A stretch of 64,000 nucleotides of DNA, taken from NCBI RefSeq assembly GCF_900182905.1, contig NZ_FXUF01000001.1, positions 124,001 to 188,000 of the forward strand, in the 5' to 3' direction. Numbering within the stretch: the stretch's first letter is position 1; every line of letters begins with the position of its first letter. Positions 36,932 through 45,588 of the stretch are shown here, piece by piece. The notes below the pieces were generated by a model. It was not told the origin of the DNA, made no database searches, and was given only the letters and a program-made list of their open reading frames with translations. Origin of the DNA: Anoxynatronum buryatiense (GTDB lineage Bacteria; Bacillota; Clostridia; Peptostreptococcales; Tindalliaceae). Position numbers and translations under genes: made by a program.

Positions 36932-37141
36932 ACGGCCCCTCCTTTTTCGTTGTGTGAAACTAATGTGCAATTGTTTTTTTGGCATTTAACATCCATGCCT
37001 GTGTCTTATAGTTTAACGATTCTTTCCGGGTTTTACCAGTTTTCTTTATTCATTTCGTATTATACTTCTTATTCGAAATCTGCCGAGCATTGTTTTCAAC
37101 TCAGTTAGCAGAACATCAAATCCACATATTTCAATTTTTTA

Positions 37142-37193
37142 GGGCAAAACAAAACCACCTGCCGACAAAGCTCTTATCAATAGGTGGTCCTTC
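37142..37193 (-). terminator. Terminator, copy 1 of a duplicated palindrome
   Basis: Arms ACCACCT and AGGTGGT around TATTGATAAG form a hairpin, and TTTTGTTTTG follows on the minus strand. The stem and the flanking GGGCAAAA segment recur at 45255-45318. Confidence 0.7.
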
Positions 37194-37346
37194 ATTTGGG
37201 TTGCGTGCAGTCAATTGATTCGTGGCGCTGTCACCCAAAGGGCTGCCCACAATAACTGACCGTCCTTTGCAGTATCGTTTATCGTTGGCTAAACCGCTAA
37301 GAGTTATGCTTATAGTTGAATTGAATGAAAAATGGAATCTGCAGTA

Positions 37347-40721: not shown

Positions 40722-41243
40722 ATGAAAACCCCGAAACCGGTGTTTTTTGTTAGGAGTTTGGAGCCATTTTTCTGCCCCTGCTGCCATTCTTCAGAAAAAA
40801 AGGTCATTGGAAGTCGGAACCGGAAGGTCCTTGAGGCTCACGAGGCCAACGGAGACCTTGTAGAGAAGGTCCTTCGTATCCGCAGACTCCAGTGCAAATC
40901 CTGTCTGAAGATCCATCACCAACTGCCGGACCTTCTAATCCCCTACAAGCATCATGCAGCGGCACTCATGGAATCTACCCTGGAGGAACAAGAAGTACCC
41001 GTGGAAGAATCCACCCTCAGGCGCTGGAAAGTCTGGTTTGACGGCATCACCTGCCACCTGTTGGGTGCCCTGCACACCATGGAGCGGAAGGAAACAATGG
41101 AAAAGACTCCCCTCATGGGAACTGCACTTCAACGGTTCCGAAAGTATGTAGGCAGTGCCCCCGGCTGGCTGGGCCGCATTGTCCAAAGCCTGGTGAAAAA
41201 GAACCTCTGGGTACAGACCCGTTCGGCCTTTTGTGCCAGGTAA
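40722..41243 (+). CDS. DUF6431-type zinc-finger protein of a transposable element
   Basis: A 173-residue protein with an N-terminal zinc finger formed by FFCPCCHSSEKKVIGSRNRK and RIRRLQCKSCLKIHHQLP, then LLIPYKHHAAALMES. This layout is that of DUF6431 proteins, which are encoded beside Mu/IS481-like integrases in clostridia and are likely DNA-binding helpers in transposition. The C-terminal tail is basic. It overlaps or closely precedes the truncated transposase gene in the same direction. No strong ribosome site is seen. Confidence 0.65.
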   Translation: MKTPKPVFFVRSLEPFFCPCCHSSEKKVIGSRNRKVLEAHEANGDLVEKVLRIRRLQCKSCLKIHHQLPDLLIPYKHHAAALMESTLEEQEVPVEESTLRRWKVWFDGITCHLLGALHTMERKETMEKTPLMGTALQRFRKYVGSAPGWLGRIVQSLVKKNLWVQTRSAFCAR

Positions 41244-41290
41244 GATCAGTGTATGGTGATGACAATCCCACCGATGAAAGGATGATTGTC

Positions 41291-41560
41291 ATGACCAAGG
41301 ACAAGCACCAACGGCAGCTGGCGGAAAATCGGATGAAACTCATCGCCCCCCTCTTGACCCCCAGCCTGGACAAAGCCAGTTATCAGAAACTCAAAGACCA
41401 GATCAGCCAGGAAACCGGCCTGTCAGAACGCACCCTGCGCCGGTACCTTTCCCGATACCAGGAAAGAGGCTACGACGGCCTGATCTATGGGGCACAGAGT
41501 CAAAAGCCCATCATTGATGATCATATGGTCAGCCTGGTCATTGGCGGGGAGATGGCATAA
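41291..41560 (+). pseudogene. Truncated transposase: HTH part only
   Basis: The 89-residue chain starts at ATG 41291 behind AAAGGA and reads as the N-terminal helix-turn-helix of a DDE integrase-type transposase (KLKDQISQETGLSERTLRRY, ERGYDGLIYG). After GAQSQKP the homology stops and the frame ends ten or so codons later at an apparent junction near 41510. The catalytic domain is missing, so the element cannot move on its own. Confidence 0.65.
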
Positions 41561-41916
41561 CGCAGATGCCTCCAAAGCGATAAACCTTCTTATGACTTTG
41601 ACCGGTTTTTTCCTTTCCGGGAGGATAGGGCTCTGCTGAGGAGCAACCCGAGCGCCTGGTCTGGGGCAAGACGCGTATGACTCCCTCCGGTTCCCGGAGG
41701 GCAGAAAGCCGGTCAACGAAACCTGATGTGGAAAACCCAAAAGTGACAAAAGTGCTTTTGGGTTTTCCGGTCACAAAGTCCGGCAGTTTTCGGTCAGTTT
41801 AGGCCGTCTGGTTCCGGTCAGCTAGCGATAGCACTCACAGTGAAACACACTAGTCCAGTCACAGGACTAGTCTAGCTGTTATCGTTTTTCACACTTCAAT
41901 ATAAATCCATTAAAAA
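41561..41916. other. Structured non-coding stretch, likely mobile-element end
   Basis: No gene is convincing on either strand. The segment is GC-richer than its flanks and contains several inverted repeats, among them CCGGGAGG-type pairs near 41637, CCCTCCGG/CCGGAGGG near 41690, a duplicated CCAAAAG/CTTTTGG, and ACTAGTCC (41849-41856) with GGACTAGT (41864-41871). It may be the right end of the DUF6431 element or a structured RNA. Confidence 0.4.
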
Positions 41917-41919
41917 AAT

Positions 41920-41960
41920 GCACACCCCGTGGCTTCCAGATTGGAGGCTAAAGGGTGTGC
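41920..41960 (-). terminator. Terminator of the serine recombinase fragment
   Basis: GCACACCC (41920-41927) and GGGTGTGC (41953-41960) pair; a second inner stem CTTCC/GGAGG helps, and ATTTTTTTAA follows on the minus strand. The arm sequence recurs at 43253-43284 and 45339-45432. Confidence 0.8.
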
Positions 41961-41980
41961 TTGTCATTAGATCTATTCTA

Positions 41981-42672
41981 TCAACCTGTCTGCATAGTGA
42001 CTTGTTCTTTCTGCTGTATTGAATGGAAAGGCGTTTCTTCCAGATGATGGACTTGAACCTCAGTCCCATCCTTAAAATGAAACATCAATCTGCCATCTAT
42101 TAGGACTGTGACACGTTCTATGATCAACACCCAGAGACCTTCTTCAAAATCCGTCAGTGTTTCGTCTGCTTTTTCTATGTGCTTTATAAATCGTTCCATT
42201 TCCCGATTCTTGTCCTTCCGCCCCTTTTTCTGTCTTTCCAGTTGGTCAATTCCTTCCACTGCCTGTTGATACCTATCCAGATACCCCTTGTAACTCTCCT
42301 GCCATGTTTCCGGATCAACTACCCGATGAGCGTTTTCTTCAATGGCTTGCCTGACCAGCTTTGCAGCCATTTCCTTTTCCTGCTGCAGCTCTTCCAGTTC
42401 CTCCTCAATGTCCTTCACATGGCACAGGGTCTTTTGTGCTAATCGGCAGTTTTCAACTAGCTTCTCCCGGTATTCTAATAGTGAAGTAAACGCCCTCAGG
42501 AACTTCTCTTTCACTTCTTCCGTCACATGGGGGGTGGCGCACCGGACCTCACCCTTGAATTTGTCGTTGCATTGCCAGATGGTCCGCCTGTACTTTGTGT
42601 TAGACCCCCAGACCTTGGAGCCGTAGAACCCGCCGCACTGTCCGCAGACCAGGCGTGCCGACAGAAAGCTGT
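41981..42672 (-). pseudogene. C-terminal half of a large serine recombinase
   Basis: The frame carries the recombinase zinc ribbon (RLVCGQCGGFYGSKVW, then WQCNDKF and VRCATPHVTEEVKEKF), a long coiled coil (EELEELQQEKEMAAKLV) and the C-terminal strand LLIERVTVLIDG-like segment, all typical of large serine integrases. The N-terminal catalytic and DNA-binding domains are missing. Upstream of about 42670 the open frame is out-of-frame istA sequence. The gene was joined to istA within a shared stretch, AAGTACAGCTTT. It is inactive as a recombinase. Confidence 0.85.
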
Positions 42673-43115
42673 ACTTTTGTTTTGTTGCCTTTGATGTAAA
42701 CTGTTGCTTCTCCCCAGTCCACTTGGGCAGCTTCACCTGGATCAAACTCCAGCGGCATAAAAGCTTCTTTGTGTTTAGGTCTCATTTCATTGACAATATT
42801 TCGAATGGTGGATTCGCCACCGGTAAAGGCTTTTTCACGTTTTAGGCGGTGATAGATTTGCCTGGCTGTATGACTTTGATTTTTCAAACCTTCCGCTTGA
42901 TCCTGATCCAGACATTCTTGGATAAAAGCACGGATTTCTTCCGCCACAACGGATGATATTCGTTCATAGGGTTTTCGGTCCCAGGGAACATGGTTGCCTT
43001 CGCAGTGCTTCTTGACTGTATTTCTGGAGATGCTTAATGTTCGGGAAATTGCTCGTTGTGTCATACCTTCTTGGGTAAACATACGTCTGATTTGACCATA
43101 CAGTTCCACGTCCAC
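42662..43115 (-). pseudogene. istA: IS21-family istA, N-terminal fragment
   Basis: Starting at GTG 43115 behind AAAGGTG, the chain reads as IstA: HTH (GMTQRAISRTLSISRNTVKK), the segment YHRLKREKAFTGGESTIRN, and the first part of the DDE domain, FDPGEAAQVDWGEATVYI with its catalytic Asp. After KGNKTKVQL homology ends, and the sequence switches to recombinase DNA in another frame. Most of the DDE domain and istB are lost. Confidence 0.85.
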
Positions 43116-43181
43116 GATCACACCTTTCACACTCCAATCAATTAATTTGATGCTTTCAATTGTATAGGAGTTTGGATTAGG

Positions 43182-43251
43182 TGGCTCACTTATTCATCAG
43201 CACGAAGTATGATTTTGGCTCACTATCAGATTAGCATAGGCAATTTGACAA
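43182..43251. repeat. IS21-type terminal region with repeated TGGCTCACT
   Basis: TGGCTCACT occurs at 43182-43190 and 43216-43224, followed by AGATTAGCATAGGCAATTTG. Multiple short repeats at the istA-proximal end are usual for IS21 elements. A related end, AGATTAGCATAAGCAAAATC, occurs at 45143-45162. Confidence 0.65.
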
Positions 43252-43252
43252 G

Positions 43253-43284
43253 GGGTGTGCATTTTAGTTTAGGAGTGTGCATTG
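43253..43284. repeat. GTGTGCAT repeat block 1
   Basis: GGGGTGTGCATTTTAG and GGAGTGTGCATTG lie in tandem between the IS21 end and the AbiE-like toxin gene. They match arms of the palindromes at 41920 and 45339. Confidence 0.6.
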
Positions 43285-43323
43285 TTCTGAAGATTTCGCC
43301 CTAAACTCTTTCAATCAAGCTTC

Positions 43324-44082
43324 TTATTTCTCTAAGAAAACATCCTTTAGCAAACCTAACAATTCTTCGAAATCAGTTCCTTTTATTCTCAAATTCCTTA
43401 AATCTGGCTTGTCTGTAAGAATCAGCTCAGAAAATTCTGTGATGTCTTTTTGGATTCCTTTTGCCGTTTCAATTTTTTTAGAAGGTGTCACATTGGATAA
43501 TAACCTAAAGACATCGTTTTTATGCTTTCGCATGTTTTTTGAATCCACTTGCTCTCCAGCTTCTTTTCTTTTTTTCATATCCAGCCAGGCTTTCATTTTG
43601 AAAAGAATGATGGTTTCAATTTCAATGATTGAGTAACCATCAACACTTCGCTTCCCTTTCACCAGCGAATCATAATAGACGTCATTTAGAAGTATGGCTG
43701 ATAAACTGACAATGCTTTCGTCTATATGGATCGGTGTTAGTCCAGTATCAAATTTCAGTTCCATGTTAGCAGGTTTCTTGCTGAATAGTTCAATCATTTT
43801 AGGAAAAGATGGATCCTTCGGTTCAGTGAACCGATAGAACTGATATTCCCCTTCATTCTTCTCACGAGTATCATAACCACCATCTTCAATAAACTTCCAA
43901 AAGGTTTCTCCAAAAGACAAATCAAGCGCTTCAATAATGAGTACTATATCCAAGTCTTTGGTCGCTCGAAATGAAGCTCCTAACTCATCCATAATCAGGT
44001 CACATGCTGTGCCGCCGATAAAAACATATTGATTTGTATGCTCTCTAAAATACTCTTTAAATTTCTCTAGTCCGTGTACCAT
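43324..44082 (-). CDS. AbiEii-like nucleotidyltransferase toxin
   Basis: A 252-residue nucleotidyltransferase-fold protein of the AbiEii/AbiGii group. The catalytic motif is FIGGTACDLIMDELG with TKDLDIVL (Gly-Gly and DxD), followed by a helical C-terminus with KAWLDMKKRKEAGEQVDSKN, the conserved KxxD-type segment. In AbiE systems such a toxin stalls growth, aborting phage infection. AGGTGA lies close before the ATG, and the start overlaps the upstream gene by 16 bases, the tight coupling expected of a toxin-antitoxin pair. It is flanked by mobile-element repeats. Confidence 0.78.
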   Translation of the reverse strand: MVHGLEKFKEYFREHTNQYVFIGGTACDLIMDELGASFRATKDLDIVLIIEALDLSFGETFWKFIEDGGYDTREKNEGEYQFYRFTEPKDPSFPKMIELFSKKPANMELKFDTGLTPIHIDESIVSLSAILLNDVYYDSLVKGKRSVDGYSIIEIETIILFKMKAWLDMKKRKEAGEQVDSKNMRKHKNDVFRLLSNVTPSKKIETAKGIQKDITEFSELILTDKPDLRNLRIKGTDFEELLGLLKDVFLEK

Positions 44083-45041
44083 GACTCACCTCGCAAGATC
44101 GTTTCTAGCGCTTGTTCAACCCTTTCATCCGTTTCTTCCTTTAGGGATGCATATAAAGACATGACATCCACATGCTGTTTTTTAGCGAATAGCTTGGGAT
44201 CATAATGCCAAAGTTGAAGCTCAACCAGTTGCGTGTCTTTTATCATGTCTTGGTTCTTAACAATTTCAAGGTGTTCTTCATCAAGCTGTTTTCCATGCAT
44301 TGCCATGACTGGATGATCGGGCGGATTGATCATGGATAACCCTGCCAGTGCTTCAAAGCCAGCAGTCAAAGCACCTACAGGTCTTGTTCTTGTATAGATG
44401 GTTCTTCTTACTGGGGTACTTAGATACTTCCTGCCAATCACAAAATAATCCGGATCTGGAATTCTTTTATATTCTTTGCTTCTCCCCGTCTTTCCACCAA
44501 CCTCGTAAGTGACTAGATTCGCATGGTACAGGTCATTCAGCGCTCTGGAAGCTGTCATGTGATTAAACCCCATCTTTTCTGCAAACTTGGTCATATTCAC
44601 AACGTCATCTTTATGGTACAAGAAATACAAGTATGCAACCTGAGCAGGCGCTGTGAAGCGCTTCAATTCTTGTTCCGCTTGCTCTTGTGCCTTTTTCAAA
44701 TCAAGCCCCAAGAATGGCAAGTACATCTGTCCGTCTTCAATCACAAAAGGGATTCTTCTTTCAATTAACGTTTTTCTTCTATACCTTGAAAGGGTTTTAT
44801 ACAGGAGCACTACGTGACAGTCTGTAAGGTTTTTAATTTGCTTAATATGTTTTTGAAGTTGATCGATATTCGGCATCTCATGAATGACTTCCATCAAAAT
44901 ACATTGAGTTTCAAGGATTTTCATGTCATAAAAATGATAACTGTTTCTCAAAAACAGTGGGAAACGATTTTTTTTATGCCATGGCTCTACGGTTAAATCT
45001 TCGTCGATATTCTCTTTCAAATAAGACTCAGCAACCATCAT
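44067..45041 (-). CDS. HTH protein, probable AbiEi-like antitoxin
   Basis: A 324-residue protein with a winged HTH near the centre (VVNMTKFAEKMGFNHMTASR, ALNDLYHANLVTYEVGGKTG) flanked by an N-terminal alpha/beta part and a C-terminal helical part that carries RPVGALTAGFEALAGLSMI. Gene order and overlap with the AbiEii-like toxin argue that it is the cognate antitoxin/repressor. It is longer than many AbiEi proteins and has its HTH in the middle rather than at the N-terminus. ATG at 45041 follows GGAGGTGG; the longest frame is 22 codons longer. Confidence 0.65.
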   Translation of the reverse strand: MMVAESYLKENIDEDLTVEPWHKKNRFPLFLRNSYHFYDMKILETQCILMEVIHEMPNIDQLQKHIKQIKNLTDCHVVLLYKTLSRYRRKTLIERRIPFVIEDGQMYLPFLGLDLKKAQEQAEQELKRFTAPAQVAYLYFLYHKDDVVNMTKFAEKMGFNHMTASRALNDLYHANLVTYEVGGKTGRSKEYKRIPDPDYFVIGRKYLSTPVRRTIYTRTRPVGALTAGFEALAGLSMINPPDHPVMAMHGKQLDEEHLEIVKNQDMIKDTQLVELQLWHYDPKLFAKKQHVDVMSLYASLKEETDERVEQALETILRGESWYTD

Positions 45042-45142
45042 CAATGAAACCACCTCCAAACATAACGTTTCACGTATTAATATACCACTCAATTTGTTTG
45101 ATTGCAATTTATTTTGTTATATTATTTATTGGCCTTACTTTT

Positions 45143-45167
45143 AGATTAGCATAAGCAAAATCGACAT
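45143..45167. repeat. Second IS21-like end motif
   Basis: AGATTAGCATAAGCAAAATC resembles 43229-43248 (AGATTAGCATAGGCAATTTG) in the same orientation. The two bracket the AbiE-like pair. Confidence 0.55.
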
Positions 45168-45254
45168 TCACCCTCAAATACTCATCTAAAAATCACCCAG
45201 TCAGTTACCACGCCCGAATCACAAAACCTCCAAACCCACTCATTTCAGCTGTTT

Positions 45255-45318
45255 AAGGGCAAAATAAAAACCACCTATCGATAAATGCCCTTTATCAATA
45301 GGTGGTACTTCTTTTGAA
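45255..45318 (-). terminator. Terminator, copy 2 of a duplicated palindrome
   Basis: Arms ACCACCTATTGATAAA and TTATCGATAGGTGGT pair, and TTTTTATTTTG follows on the minus strand. The sequence is a near copy of 37142-37193, including the GGGCAAAA tail. Confidence 0.8.
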
Positions 45319-45338
45319 GAAGGAACCATAGATTGATA

Positions 45339-45432
45339 AAATGCACACCCCCTGTCGAAAGTTCAACGATTTGACGATAGGGGTGTGCATTTCTATTGAG
45401 GGGTGTGCATTTCTATTGAGGGGTGTGCATCT
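45339..45432. repeat. Palindrome and tandem GGGGTGTGCATTTCTATTGA repeats
   Basis: AAATGCACACCCC (45339-45351) and GGGGTGTGCATTT (45380-45392) form a perfect 13-base inverted repeat. The right arm is then repeated with a 20-base period at 45400 and 45420. From 45433 to 45588 there is only a short unassigned frame ending GGWKLPPFCGHGF. Confidence 0.8.
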
Positions 45433-45588
45433 TTGTGAAGGTTCCCGCACCTGGTTCTGGTGGGGTATGGCTGCACTTCAAGCCAATCAGGTAAGCAACC
45501 GGGTGGTACGTTGTAACACGGGCGGTGGTCACTATACTCCACCCCGGGAAGGCGGCTGGAAACTACCCCCGTTCTGTGGCCATGGTTT

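What the first reader, a model, noticed from the sequence alone, without database searches (positions are those of the whole stretch)
43182..45167. AbiE-like toxin/antitoxin cassette between repeated IS ends
The overlapping toxin and antitoxin genes are framed by same-direction AGATTAGCATA(A/G)GCAA motifs (43229, 45143) and GTGTGCAT blocks. The antitoxin has an unusual length and a central HTH, so it may be a distinct subtype. IS activity could have brought the cassette in.
Basis: partly seen in the sequence, partly recalled or inferred. Interest (0 to 1): 0.55.

Follow-up and report, generated by a model that had tools for sequence, protein, structure and literature searches.

The report
Divergent AbiE-type toxin-antitoxin gene pair
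A two-gene bacterial poison-and-antidote cassette, apparently a divergent branch of the known AbiE/MenAT family that standard annotation mostly does not recognise, sits beside the worn-out end of a transposon that probably has little to do with how it works.

Summary
The two overlapping genes are real. The toxin-like gene (43324-44082, -) encodes a 252-aa polβ-fold nucleotidyltransferase whose model matches the toxin MenT3 (Z 10.2). The partner starts at TTG 45044, so it has 325 aa, not 346, with a central MarR-like winged helix. The pair is adjacent in 41 of 44 genome-derived and 24 of 25 viral loci, and on two inspected conjugative plasmids. A four-site operator straddles the promoter: 51 sites in 16 upstream regions against 4.0 expected. 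Ten loci have a disrupted toxin beside a full-length partner; none was seen the other way round.

Profile comparisons link both proteins, below curated thresholds, to the AbiEi_2 (COG4861-COG4849-type) branch of AbiE. All 57 distinct full-length toxins read KHxxD where 11 of 11 comparators read KDxxD. This is a variant of a known kind.

The IS framing is half right. 43228 carries the exact end of a truncated IS21-family element. The 45143 copy is a 16-nt match of uncertain origin. IS21 fragments also lie within 250 bp of the cassette in 2 of the 44 genome-derived loci, with different placement, so IS capture is unlikely but not excluded. Toxicity, neutralisation and phage defence are inferred, not shown.

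The parts
43324..44082 (-). Toxin-like nucleotidyltransferase, 252 aa (AbiEii/MenT-like; GGxA, RxTxDhD, K162..A165, KHxxD)
   Evidence: AbiEii PF08843 E 0.0012, 19.2 bits, below the 22.5 cut-off; 12 of 27 aligned members match, window included, best 8.5e-8; AlphaFold model pLDDT 81.9 matches MenT3 6y5u Z 10.2, 4.2 A over 199 residues; motifs in 57 of 57 distinct full-length members
44067..45044 (-). Antitoxin-like repressor, 325 aa, TTG start: N-terminal alpha/beta domain, central MarR-type wHTH (133-188), C-terminal domain
   Evidence: Corrected start from close relatives; MarR_2 sub-threshold; model pLDDT 87.5, pTM 0.60; colinear hhalign match to AbiEi_2-type antitoxins, 274 columns, probability 90.1%, pairwise E 1.6e-6, controls 0.1-0.4%
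45053..45057 (-). Shine-Dalgarno GGAGG of the antitoxin gene
   Evidence: Sequence; similar G-rich sites at the same place in the 15 relatives printed
45079..45107 (-). Promoter: -35 TTGCAA (45107-45102), 17-bp spacer, -10 TATATT (45084-45079)
   Evidence: Sequence; position shared with close relatives
45058..45124 (-). Operator array of four TAATATAAC-type sites (> > < <): 45116-45124 exact, 45096-45104 weak, 45078-45086 one mismatch, 45058-45066 two mismatches
   Evidence: 51 sites (at most 1 mismatch) in 16 upstream regions against 4.0 in dinucleotide shuffles, at recurring positions near -82, -61, -43, -22; only 2 of the 51 are in the window
42661..43242 (-). Truncated IS21-family remnant (istA 5' part) ending at ...AGATTAGCATAGGCA, 81 bp beyond the toxin stop; not part of the cassette
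   Evidence: NCBIfam IS21 E 1.7e-29, 103.3 bits, below the 160 cut-off; other pieces at ends of contigs C21 (istA piece, and istB at 241 bits over the 200 cut-off), C6, C10
45129..45158 (+). Second AGATTAGCATAAGCAA copy, possible IS-end remnant; origin uncertain
   Evidence: 24/30 match to 43214-43243; one of only 4 hits (up to 1 mismatch) to the 15-mer in this genome, against 1 for the pattern read backwards
45332..45433 (.). GTGTGCAT block: one inverted and three direct repeats; no link to the cassette shown
   Evidence: 30-mer unit not found elsewhere in own genome or 59 relatives

Best explanation
A two-gene toxin-antitoxin cassette on a divergent branch of the AbiE/MenAT superfamily, nearest to the COG4861-COG4849 (AbiEi_2-type) pairs. 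Proposed working: the first gene's product binds a four-site operator across its own promoter through the central winged helix and represses the operon; the N- and C-terminal domains neutralise the toxin, by contact or by provoking its self-phosphorylation as proposed for MenAT. When repressor is lost or titrated, the nucleotidyltransferase adds nucleotides to an essential RNA, most likely tRNA 3' ends as MenT does, and stops growth. This stabilises the mobile element carrying the pair and may abort phage infection. Shown here: gene pair, predicted fold, motifs, operator repeats, plasmid/viral and patchy distribution, asymmetric decay, distant homology. Inferred: repression, toxicity, neutralisation, RNA target, phage effect. 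The flanking IS21 remnant is probably incidental.
For: Fold and motifs. Pairing: 41 of 44 genome-derived loci (L020-L063; L020 and L026 are the same contig) and 24 of 25 viral loci (some near-identical) have both genes adjacent. Of the four exceptions L057 and L083 are cut by contig ends; L024 and L063 hold only partial toxins. Operator: 51 against 4.0 expected. Decay: 10 loci with a disrupted toxin and full-length partner (L032, L033, L034, L047, L055, L058, L060, L062, L091, L099), 0 seen the other way, 2 with both damaged (L052, L059). Distribution: 12 of 398 phylum genomes, own included; 0 of 6 other genomes of its family; toxin in 49 plasmid records, 32 predicted conjugative; 25 viral loci. 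Distant homology to AbiEi_2-type pairs with negative controls.
Against: No curated AbiEi model matches the partner, and AbiEii matches the toxin only below its cut-off. The best Foldseek E-value was only 1.6e-3. Several disrupted toxins come from draft or metagenome assemblies, so some may be sequence errors; one antitoxin fragment (L104) has no toxin match in the DNA held. The tree clusters toxins by phylum with the fewest possible changes, so it does not show transfer between phyla. Two of the window's own four operator sites are weak. The literature listings and passages seen describe no experiment on a member. The tRNA target rests on analogy.
Confidence: 0.75

Rival explanations
1. The pair is an ordinary regulatory operon: a MarR-type regulator controlling a nucleotidyltransferase that modifies a small molecule or RNA, without toxicity.
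For: MarR-like wHTH and operator; the same fold includes ANT(2'')-Ia and LnuA resistance enzymes (Z about 8.3); plasmid carriage also fits resistance genes.
Against: MenT3 and MenT1 score higher and cover more of the model than ANT/LnuA; AbiEii/MenT-type motifs invariant; decay seen only on the toxin side; partner homologous over 274 columns to AbiEi_2-type antitoxins.
Confidence: 0.15
2. An IS-borne cassette: the two same-direction AGATTAGCATA ends mark an IS21-type unit that captured and moved the toxin-antitoxin pair as a passenger.
For: 43228 is a true IS end; the 15-mer has only 4 hits (up to 1 mismatch) in the genome, one just outside the operator; IS21 pieces also lie close to the cassette in relatives: an istA piece 158 bp before the antitoxin in L062 and an istB piece about 240 bp before it in L028, plus an istB about 2 kb after the toxin in viral L077.
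Against: The outer copy is only 16 nt of firm match and its extension overlaps the cassette's upstream region; no matching opposite end in the window; istA is truncated; in L062 and L028 the IS21 piece is on the antitoxin side, here on the toxin side; 66 of 69 loci have no match to this IS21's proteins; the exact 14-mer core was in none of the relatives' loci held when searched.
Confidence: 0.1
3. A standard COG5340-COG2253 AbiE system that models merely miss.
For: AbiEii is the only Pfam match of the toxin; gene order is the same.
Against: AbiEi of that branch has an N-terminal wHTH (PMC3985639 and PMC7319586, passages); here about 130 residues precede it. No AbiEi family appears in the Pfam matches of 32 members and no PADLOC AbiE model matches the pair.
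Confidence: 0.05

Closest known systems
COG4861-COG4849 pairs (AbiEi_2 PF09952 with an NTase; the M. tuberculosis pair Rv0837c-Rv0836c is listed as DUF1814-COG4861 in PMC3968373, passages read)
   Same: Regulator gene first, short overlap with the toxin gene (13 nt in 5 of the 11 plasmid comparators), antitoxin of 350-390 aa with residues before an HTH (HTH_IclR at 153-189 in L105, sub-threshold), colinear profile match over 274 columns; toxin profile match over 149 columns
   Different: No PF09952 match; toxin about 40 aa shorter; KHxxD instead of KDxxD; a CEVKS-like stretch in the comparators' consensus is not seen in A2
MenT3 / MenT1 toxins (MenAT)
   Same: Polβ NTase fold (Z 10.2 and 9.5)
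   Different: 14-15% identity; MenA1 and MenA3 antitoxins are smaller (7.4 and 22.5 kDa, PMC11375011, passage) and built differently
AbiE of Streptococcus agalactiae (COG5340-COG2253)
   Same: Gene order, NTase with motifs I-III, repressor over promoter repeats (PMC3985639, PMC7319586, passages)
   Different: Two-domain antitoxin with N-terminal wHTH; +DxxD motif IV; no Pfam AbiEi match here
HEPN/MNT modules
   Same: NTase-domain protein in a two-gene TA
   Different: There the NTase is the antitoxin and the HEPN protein the RNase toxin (PMC7641770, start of abstract in a listing)

Membership tests
AbiEii/DUF1814 (MenT-like) nucleotidyltransferase toxins | Polβ NTase fold like MenT3/MenT1 | tested here: met
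   Predicted model: 6y5u Z 10.2, 4.2 A, 199 residues; 8an4 Z 9.5, 4.3 A, 171 residues; top row is a fungal NTase-like protein, 5uvd, Z 11.8
AbiEii/DUF1814 (MenT-like) nucleotidyltransferase toxins | Motifs I-II hG[G/S]..DhD with Arg four residues before the first Asp | tested here: met
   GGxA and RxTxDhD in 57 of 57 distinct full-length toxins; here 18 residues lie between the second Gly and Asp, 15 in the published spacing
AbiEii/DUF1814 (MenT-like) nucleotidyltransferase toxins | Motif III K..A and motif IV +DxxD | tested here: inconclusive
   K162, A165, K186, H187, D190 invariant in 27; KHxxD in 57 of 57, 3 of which also hold a KDxxD elsewhere after residue 140; second Asp kept, first replaced by His
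AbiEii/DUF1814 (MenT-like) nucleotidyltransferase toxins | Pfam PF08843 above gathering score | tested here: not met
   Window protein 19.2 against 22.5 bits; 12 of 27 members match at E up to 0.01
COG4861-COG4849 (AbiEi_2) pair | Antitoxin homologous to AbiEi_2-type proteins along its length | tested here: met
   hhalign probability 90.1%, E 1.6e-6, 274 columns from residue 40 on; reversed, shuffled and unrelated profiles 0.1-0.4%; against the single protein of L105 60.9%, 142 columns
COG4861-COG4849 (AbiEi_2) pair | PF09952 match above cut-off | tested here: not met
   PF09952 not among matches of 32 members at E up to 0.01; no match in the window's genome at E up to 0.001
COG4861-COG4849 (AbiEi_2) pair | Toxin homologous to the NTases paired with AbiEi_2 | tested here: met
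   hhalign probability 88.7%, E 2.5e-6, 149 columns, stopping before motif IV; controls 0.1-0.2% for shuffled and reversed. The NTP_transf_8-type NTase of L105 gave 0.4%
COG5340-COG2253 AbiE | Antitoxin with N-terminal wHTH and C-terminal antitoxin domain | tested here: not met
   wHTH is central, 133-188 of 325
Toxin-antitoxin system in general | Toxin arrests growth, partner relieves it | not testable with these tools
   No experiment possible; only asymmetric decay points to it
AbiE-type autoregulation | Repeats across the promoter bound by the antitoxin | tested here: inconclusive
   Repeats present; binding untested
Anti-phage abortive infection | Lowers phage yield | not testable with these tools
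   No phage assay possible; no PADLOC AbiE model matches

The most novel reading that the evidence does not exclude
A separate, unmodelled class of AbiE-like systems, found in several phyla, on conjugative plasmids and in viral contigs, whose toxins carry an invariant histidine in motif IV (KHxxD) and may modify a different RNA or use a different nucleotide from MenT, and whose three-domain antitoxin uses its N-terminal alpha/beta domain, related to that of AbiEi_2 proteins, as the sensor that releases the toxin.
Probability: 0.3. Interest if true: 0.6.

Novelty: new variant of a known kind. Interest (0 to 1): 0.42.

Why it matters
AbiE is called the fourth most abundant phage defence system in prokaryotes (PMC11375011, passage), yet in the papers searched its COG4861-type branch seems little studied; in that paper MenT2 was omitted for lack of detectable activity. 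This pair is a compact, intact, widely carried relative with a clear operator and a clean signature (KHxxD). PADLOC, PHROGs and NCBIfam give it no family beyond weak HTH matches, and most plasmid rows listed name the genes 'hypothetical protein' (exceptions: MarR or HTH regulator, and one AbiEii label). If active, it would extend the known reach of nucleotidyltransferase toxins and offer a tractable model for that branch.

Tried and rejected
IS passenger hypothesis: searched for the opposite IS end in the window and in the C21 copy, for the IS21 terminal repeat and the GTGTGCAT 30-mer, for the end motif in relatives and held loci, and for this IS21's proteins in 69 loci (pieces in L028, L062 and L077; L062's piece is over the IS21 cut-off). 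This speaks somewhat for IS21 visiting such loci; I raised that rival from 0.08 in my draft to 0.10.

PDB sequence search: toxin profile 0 matches, antitoxin profile 45, named as generic wHTH regulators apart from a few such as HipB. PHROGs: 0 families for four proteins. PADLOC gave only weak matches of the antitoxin's HTH part, such as Csa3 E 5.2e-4. AbiEi structures were not among the 50 rows listed for the antitoxin model, which is inconclusive; 6y8q and 1zel (AbiEi antitoxins) did appear at Z 7.5 and 4.0 against the toxin model, not followed up.

PF09952: 0 of 118 genomes of the order and 1 of 398 of the phylum; that locus, L105, seeded the AbiEi_2 comparison set through plasmids. Its own NTase is NTP_transf_8, did not match and was left out of A4. 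L120 was fetched but has a shorter frame and no NTase listed; it was left out of A3 and A4.

Tree: 27 toxins; phylum labels need 3 changes, the least possible, so it does not show transfer between phyla.

Neighbour census: 133 of 137 selected neighbours (the four of L051, a near-copy of L049, were dropped). In Pfam every family with two or more members is shown and none is a transposase, but singletons are mostly hidden, so single transposases are not excluded; one neighbour matches Cas12f models. In NCBIfam only 25 of 751 families are shown, so it decides nothing. PADLOC AbiEi models matched 2 neighbours; not followed up. L053 and L056 (toxin partial or split, contig ends near) were left out of the decay count.
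Full report
What is there. On the minus strand lie two overlapping genes. The second, 43324-44082, encodes 252 aa. The region above that start is promoter: TTGCAA, 17 bp, TATATT. Toxin start and antitoxin stop overlap by 16 nt. The same 16 nt is found in 18 of 41 paired loci, including records titled Chloroflexi, Riflebacteria and Atribacteria (not counting L049, L051 and L061, whose antitoxin frame stops earlier).

The toxin-like protein. Pfam AbiEii matches at E 0.0012, below its gathering score; PADLOC and NCBIfam give nothing. Of 27 aligned members, window included, 12 match AbiEii at E up to 0.01, best 8.5e-8. The AlphaFold model (27 sequences, pLDDT 81.9) had no Foldseek PDB match at E 0.001 or better; the best was a Mimivirus polyadenylate synthase at 1.6e-3, with MenT3 further down at 2.9e-2. 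The second alignment ranked a fungal NTase-like protein first (5uvd, Z 11.8), then MenT3 entries (Z about 10, rmsd about 4 A, 190-200 residues) and MenT1 (Z 9.5). All 57 distinct full-length toxins found with the profile, window included, carry GGxA, RxTxDhD and KHxxD. The published AbiEii motif IV is +DxxD (PMC3985639, section 28 read), and 11 of 11 comparators paired with AbiEi_2 proteins read KDxxD.

The partner. Of 32 aligned members, 24 match MarR at E up to 0.01; no AbiEi family is among the 21 families listed. The model (pLDDT 87.5, pTM 0.60) has about 130 residues before a MarR-type winged helix, then a C-terminal alpha/beta part. The PDB rows concentrate on the winged helix; the other two parts are barely tested (one Foldseek row, XisH 2okf, E 0.018, may touch them).

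Relation to AbiE branches. PMC3985639 (passages read) distinguishes COG5340-COG2253, which includes AbiE proper, from COG4861-COG4849. I collected AbiEi_2 (PF09952) proteins: one from the phylum and relatives of it on plasmids. Of the 13 loci so obtained (L105, L109-L120), 12 gave the antitoxin set A3 and 11 the toxin set A4. Profile comparison: A2 against A3, probability 90.1%, pairwise E 1.6e-6, 274 columns, colinear from residue 40 to the end; A1 against A4, 88.7%, E 2.5e-6, 149 columns. Reversed, column-shuffled and mismatched profiles gave 0.1 to 0.4%. A direct profile scan of the comparators gave only two weak hits (A1 to L111, E 1.4e-4; A2 to L119, E 2e-4). So the pair is a distant relative of that branch, not a member by the curated models. 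That PF09952 corresponds to COG4861 is recalled (PMC7251935 holds both terms by its listing, not opened); no COG search was run.

Pairing and decay. Scanning six frames with both profiles, 41 of 44 genome-derived loci (L020-L063; L020 and L026 are one contig) have both genes side by side. L057 is cut by its contig end, and L024 and L063 carry only partial toxins. In viral loci 24 of 25 are paired (L083 is cut; some loci are near-identical). Of the 12 antitoxin-led loci (L093-L104, of which L093 is the window), 11 have the toxin next to it; L104 is an antitoxin fragment with no toxin match in the DNA held. Ten loci have a disrupted toxin beside a full-length partner (L032, which L094 seems to repeat, L033, L034, L047, L055, L058, L060, L062, L091, L099). 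None of those seen has an intact toxin beside a disrupted partner, and two have damage in both (L052, L059). Five viral antitoxins whose profile match starts late (L082, L085-L088) have open frame above it. L053 and L056 were not counted. All genome and viral loci but the last 12 were found through the toxin, which if anything favours intact toxins. Assembly errors are a caveat.

Operator. In 16 upstream regions (window plus 15 close relatives) TAATATAAC or its complement occurs 51 times with at most one mismatch against 4.0 in dinucleotide shuffles. The recurring places are near -82, -61, -43 and -22, oriented > > < <, about 21 bp within each pair, over the -35 and -10. The window keeps one exact and one near-exact site; the other two are weaker. 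More distant relatives were not tested. Rv2827c of the COG5340 branch also has four promoter repeats (PMC7319586, passages).

Distribution. Toxin: 6 of 60 near genomes including the window's own, and none in the other two of its genus or four of its family; antitoxin 5 of 60, own included, and 12 of 398 in the phylum, own included. Plasmids: toxin in 49 records, 32 predicted conjugative, antitoxin in 32 records. Two conjugative Pseudomonas plasmids inspected (L107, L108) carry both genes, annotated as hypothetical proteins, and both match the profiles; a non-mobilizable Sulfurospirillum plasmid (L106) carries the pair with the toxin labelled AbiEii. Phage records: 3; viral contigs: 25 loci. 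Wider relatives are in records titled Chloroflexi, Riflebacteria, Bacteroidales, Burkholderiales, Atribacteria and others, many of them metagenome bins; the toxin tree clusters by phylum with the fewest possible changes.

Insertion-sequence framing. AGATTAGCATAGGCA at 43228 is the true end of an IS21-family element: contigs C6 and C10 start with the same end and then diverge; C21 ends inside istA with istB beside it. In the window only the istA 5' part from about 42661 survives, fused to a serine-recombinase zinc-ribbon fragment. The 45143 copy is one of four hits (up to 1 mismatch) to the 15-mer in the genome, with one hit for the backward pattern, so its nearness is unlikely to be pure chance, but only 16 nt are firm. 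The GTGTGCAT blocks are another, local repeat set. Against my reading: pieces of IS21-type proteins lie within 250 bp of the cassette in 2 of 44 genome-derived loci (L062 istA, L028 istB) and about 2 kb away in 1 of 25 viral loci (L077). They are on the antitoxin side in L062 and L028, on the toxin side here, and the other 66 of 69 loci have none. Among 133 neighbouring proteins no transposase Pfam family matched two or more. The IS remnant is best read as a visitor in a stretch worn by mobile elements, though IS21 may favour such places.

Literature. Six searches: AbiEi/AbiEii with nucleotidyltransferase (25 of 25 listed), MarR with AbiEii (5 of 5), COG4861/COG4849 (8 of 8), AbiEi with domain terms (10 of 26), PF09952 and its names (6 of 6), MenT/MenA terms (5 of 5). 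No title or abstract start listed describes this branch; apart from passages of PMC3985639 (and its section 28), PMC7319586, PMC11375011 and PMC3968373, papers were seen only as listing entries. PMC3968373 (passages) lists DUF1814-COG4861 as Rv0836c-Rv0837c, and PMC11375011 (passages) omitted MenT2 for lack of detectable activity. That Rv0836c is MenT2 is recalled.

Verdict. A real and probably functional toxin-antitoxin cassette, a new variant of a known kind; the IS story is probably incidental. Toxicity, neutralisation, RNA target and phage effect remain to be tested.

Noticed in passing
window 40722-43130: Chimeric stretch: the 5' part of an IS21 istA is joined near 42661 to the C-terminal zinc-ribbon part of a serine recombinase (41981-42745 frame), with DUF6431 and transposase-like HTH frames next to it (40722-41560); a stretch worn by mobile elements.
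   Followed up: partly
window 45231-45316 and 37117-37198: A hairpin-forming stretch (arms 45260-45285 and 45291-45316) recurs at 80% identity 8 kb away; possibly a small dispersed repeat.
   Followed up: no
window 45379-45433: Three direct repeats of about 20 bp (AGGGGTGTGCATTTCTATTG type) with an inverted copy at 45341, resembling IS21-type terminal repeats (recalled) with no element between them; the 30-mer unit is unique in the genome.
   Followed up: partly
L062:1069-1716, L028:558-707, L077:10586-11287: Pieces of IS21-type istA or istB lie near the cassette in three relatives; whether IS21 elements favour such loci was not tested.
   Followed up: partly
alignment A3 (L105, L109-L119 antitoxins): The N-terminal part of these AbiEi_2-type antitoxins has a D...CEVKS pattern in its consensus, resembling a PD-(D/E)XK nuclease motif (recalled); it is not seen in the window's branch.
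   Followed up: no
L024:8246-8911: A relative of the toxin lacking the first 28 profile positions and with no antitoxin match in the locus.
   Followed up: no
neighbours of L021-L063 (alignment A5): PADLOC AbiEi models match 2 of 133 neighbouring proteins and an AbiEii model matches 1, hinting at clustering of AbiE-type systems.
   Followed up: no
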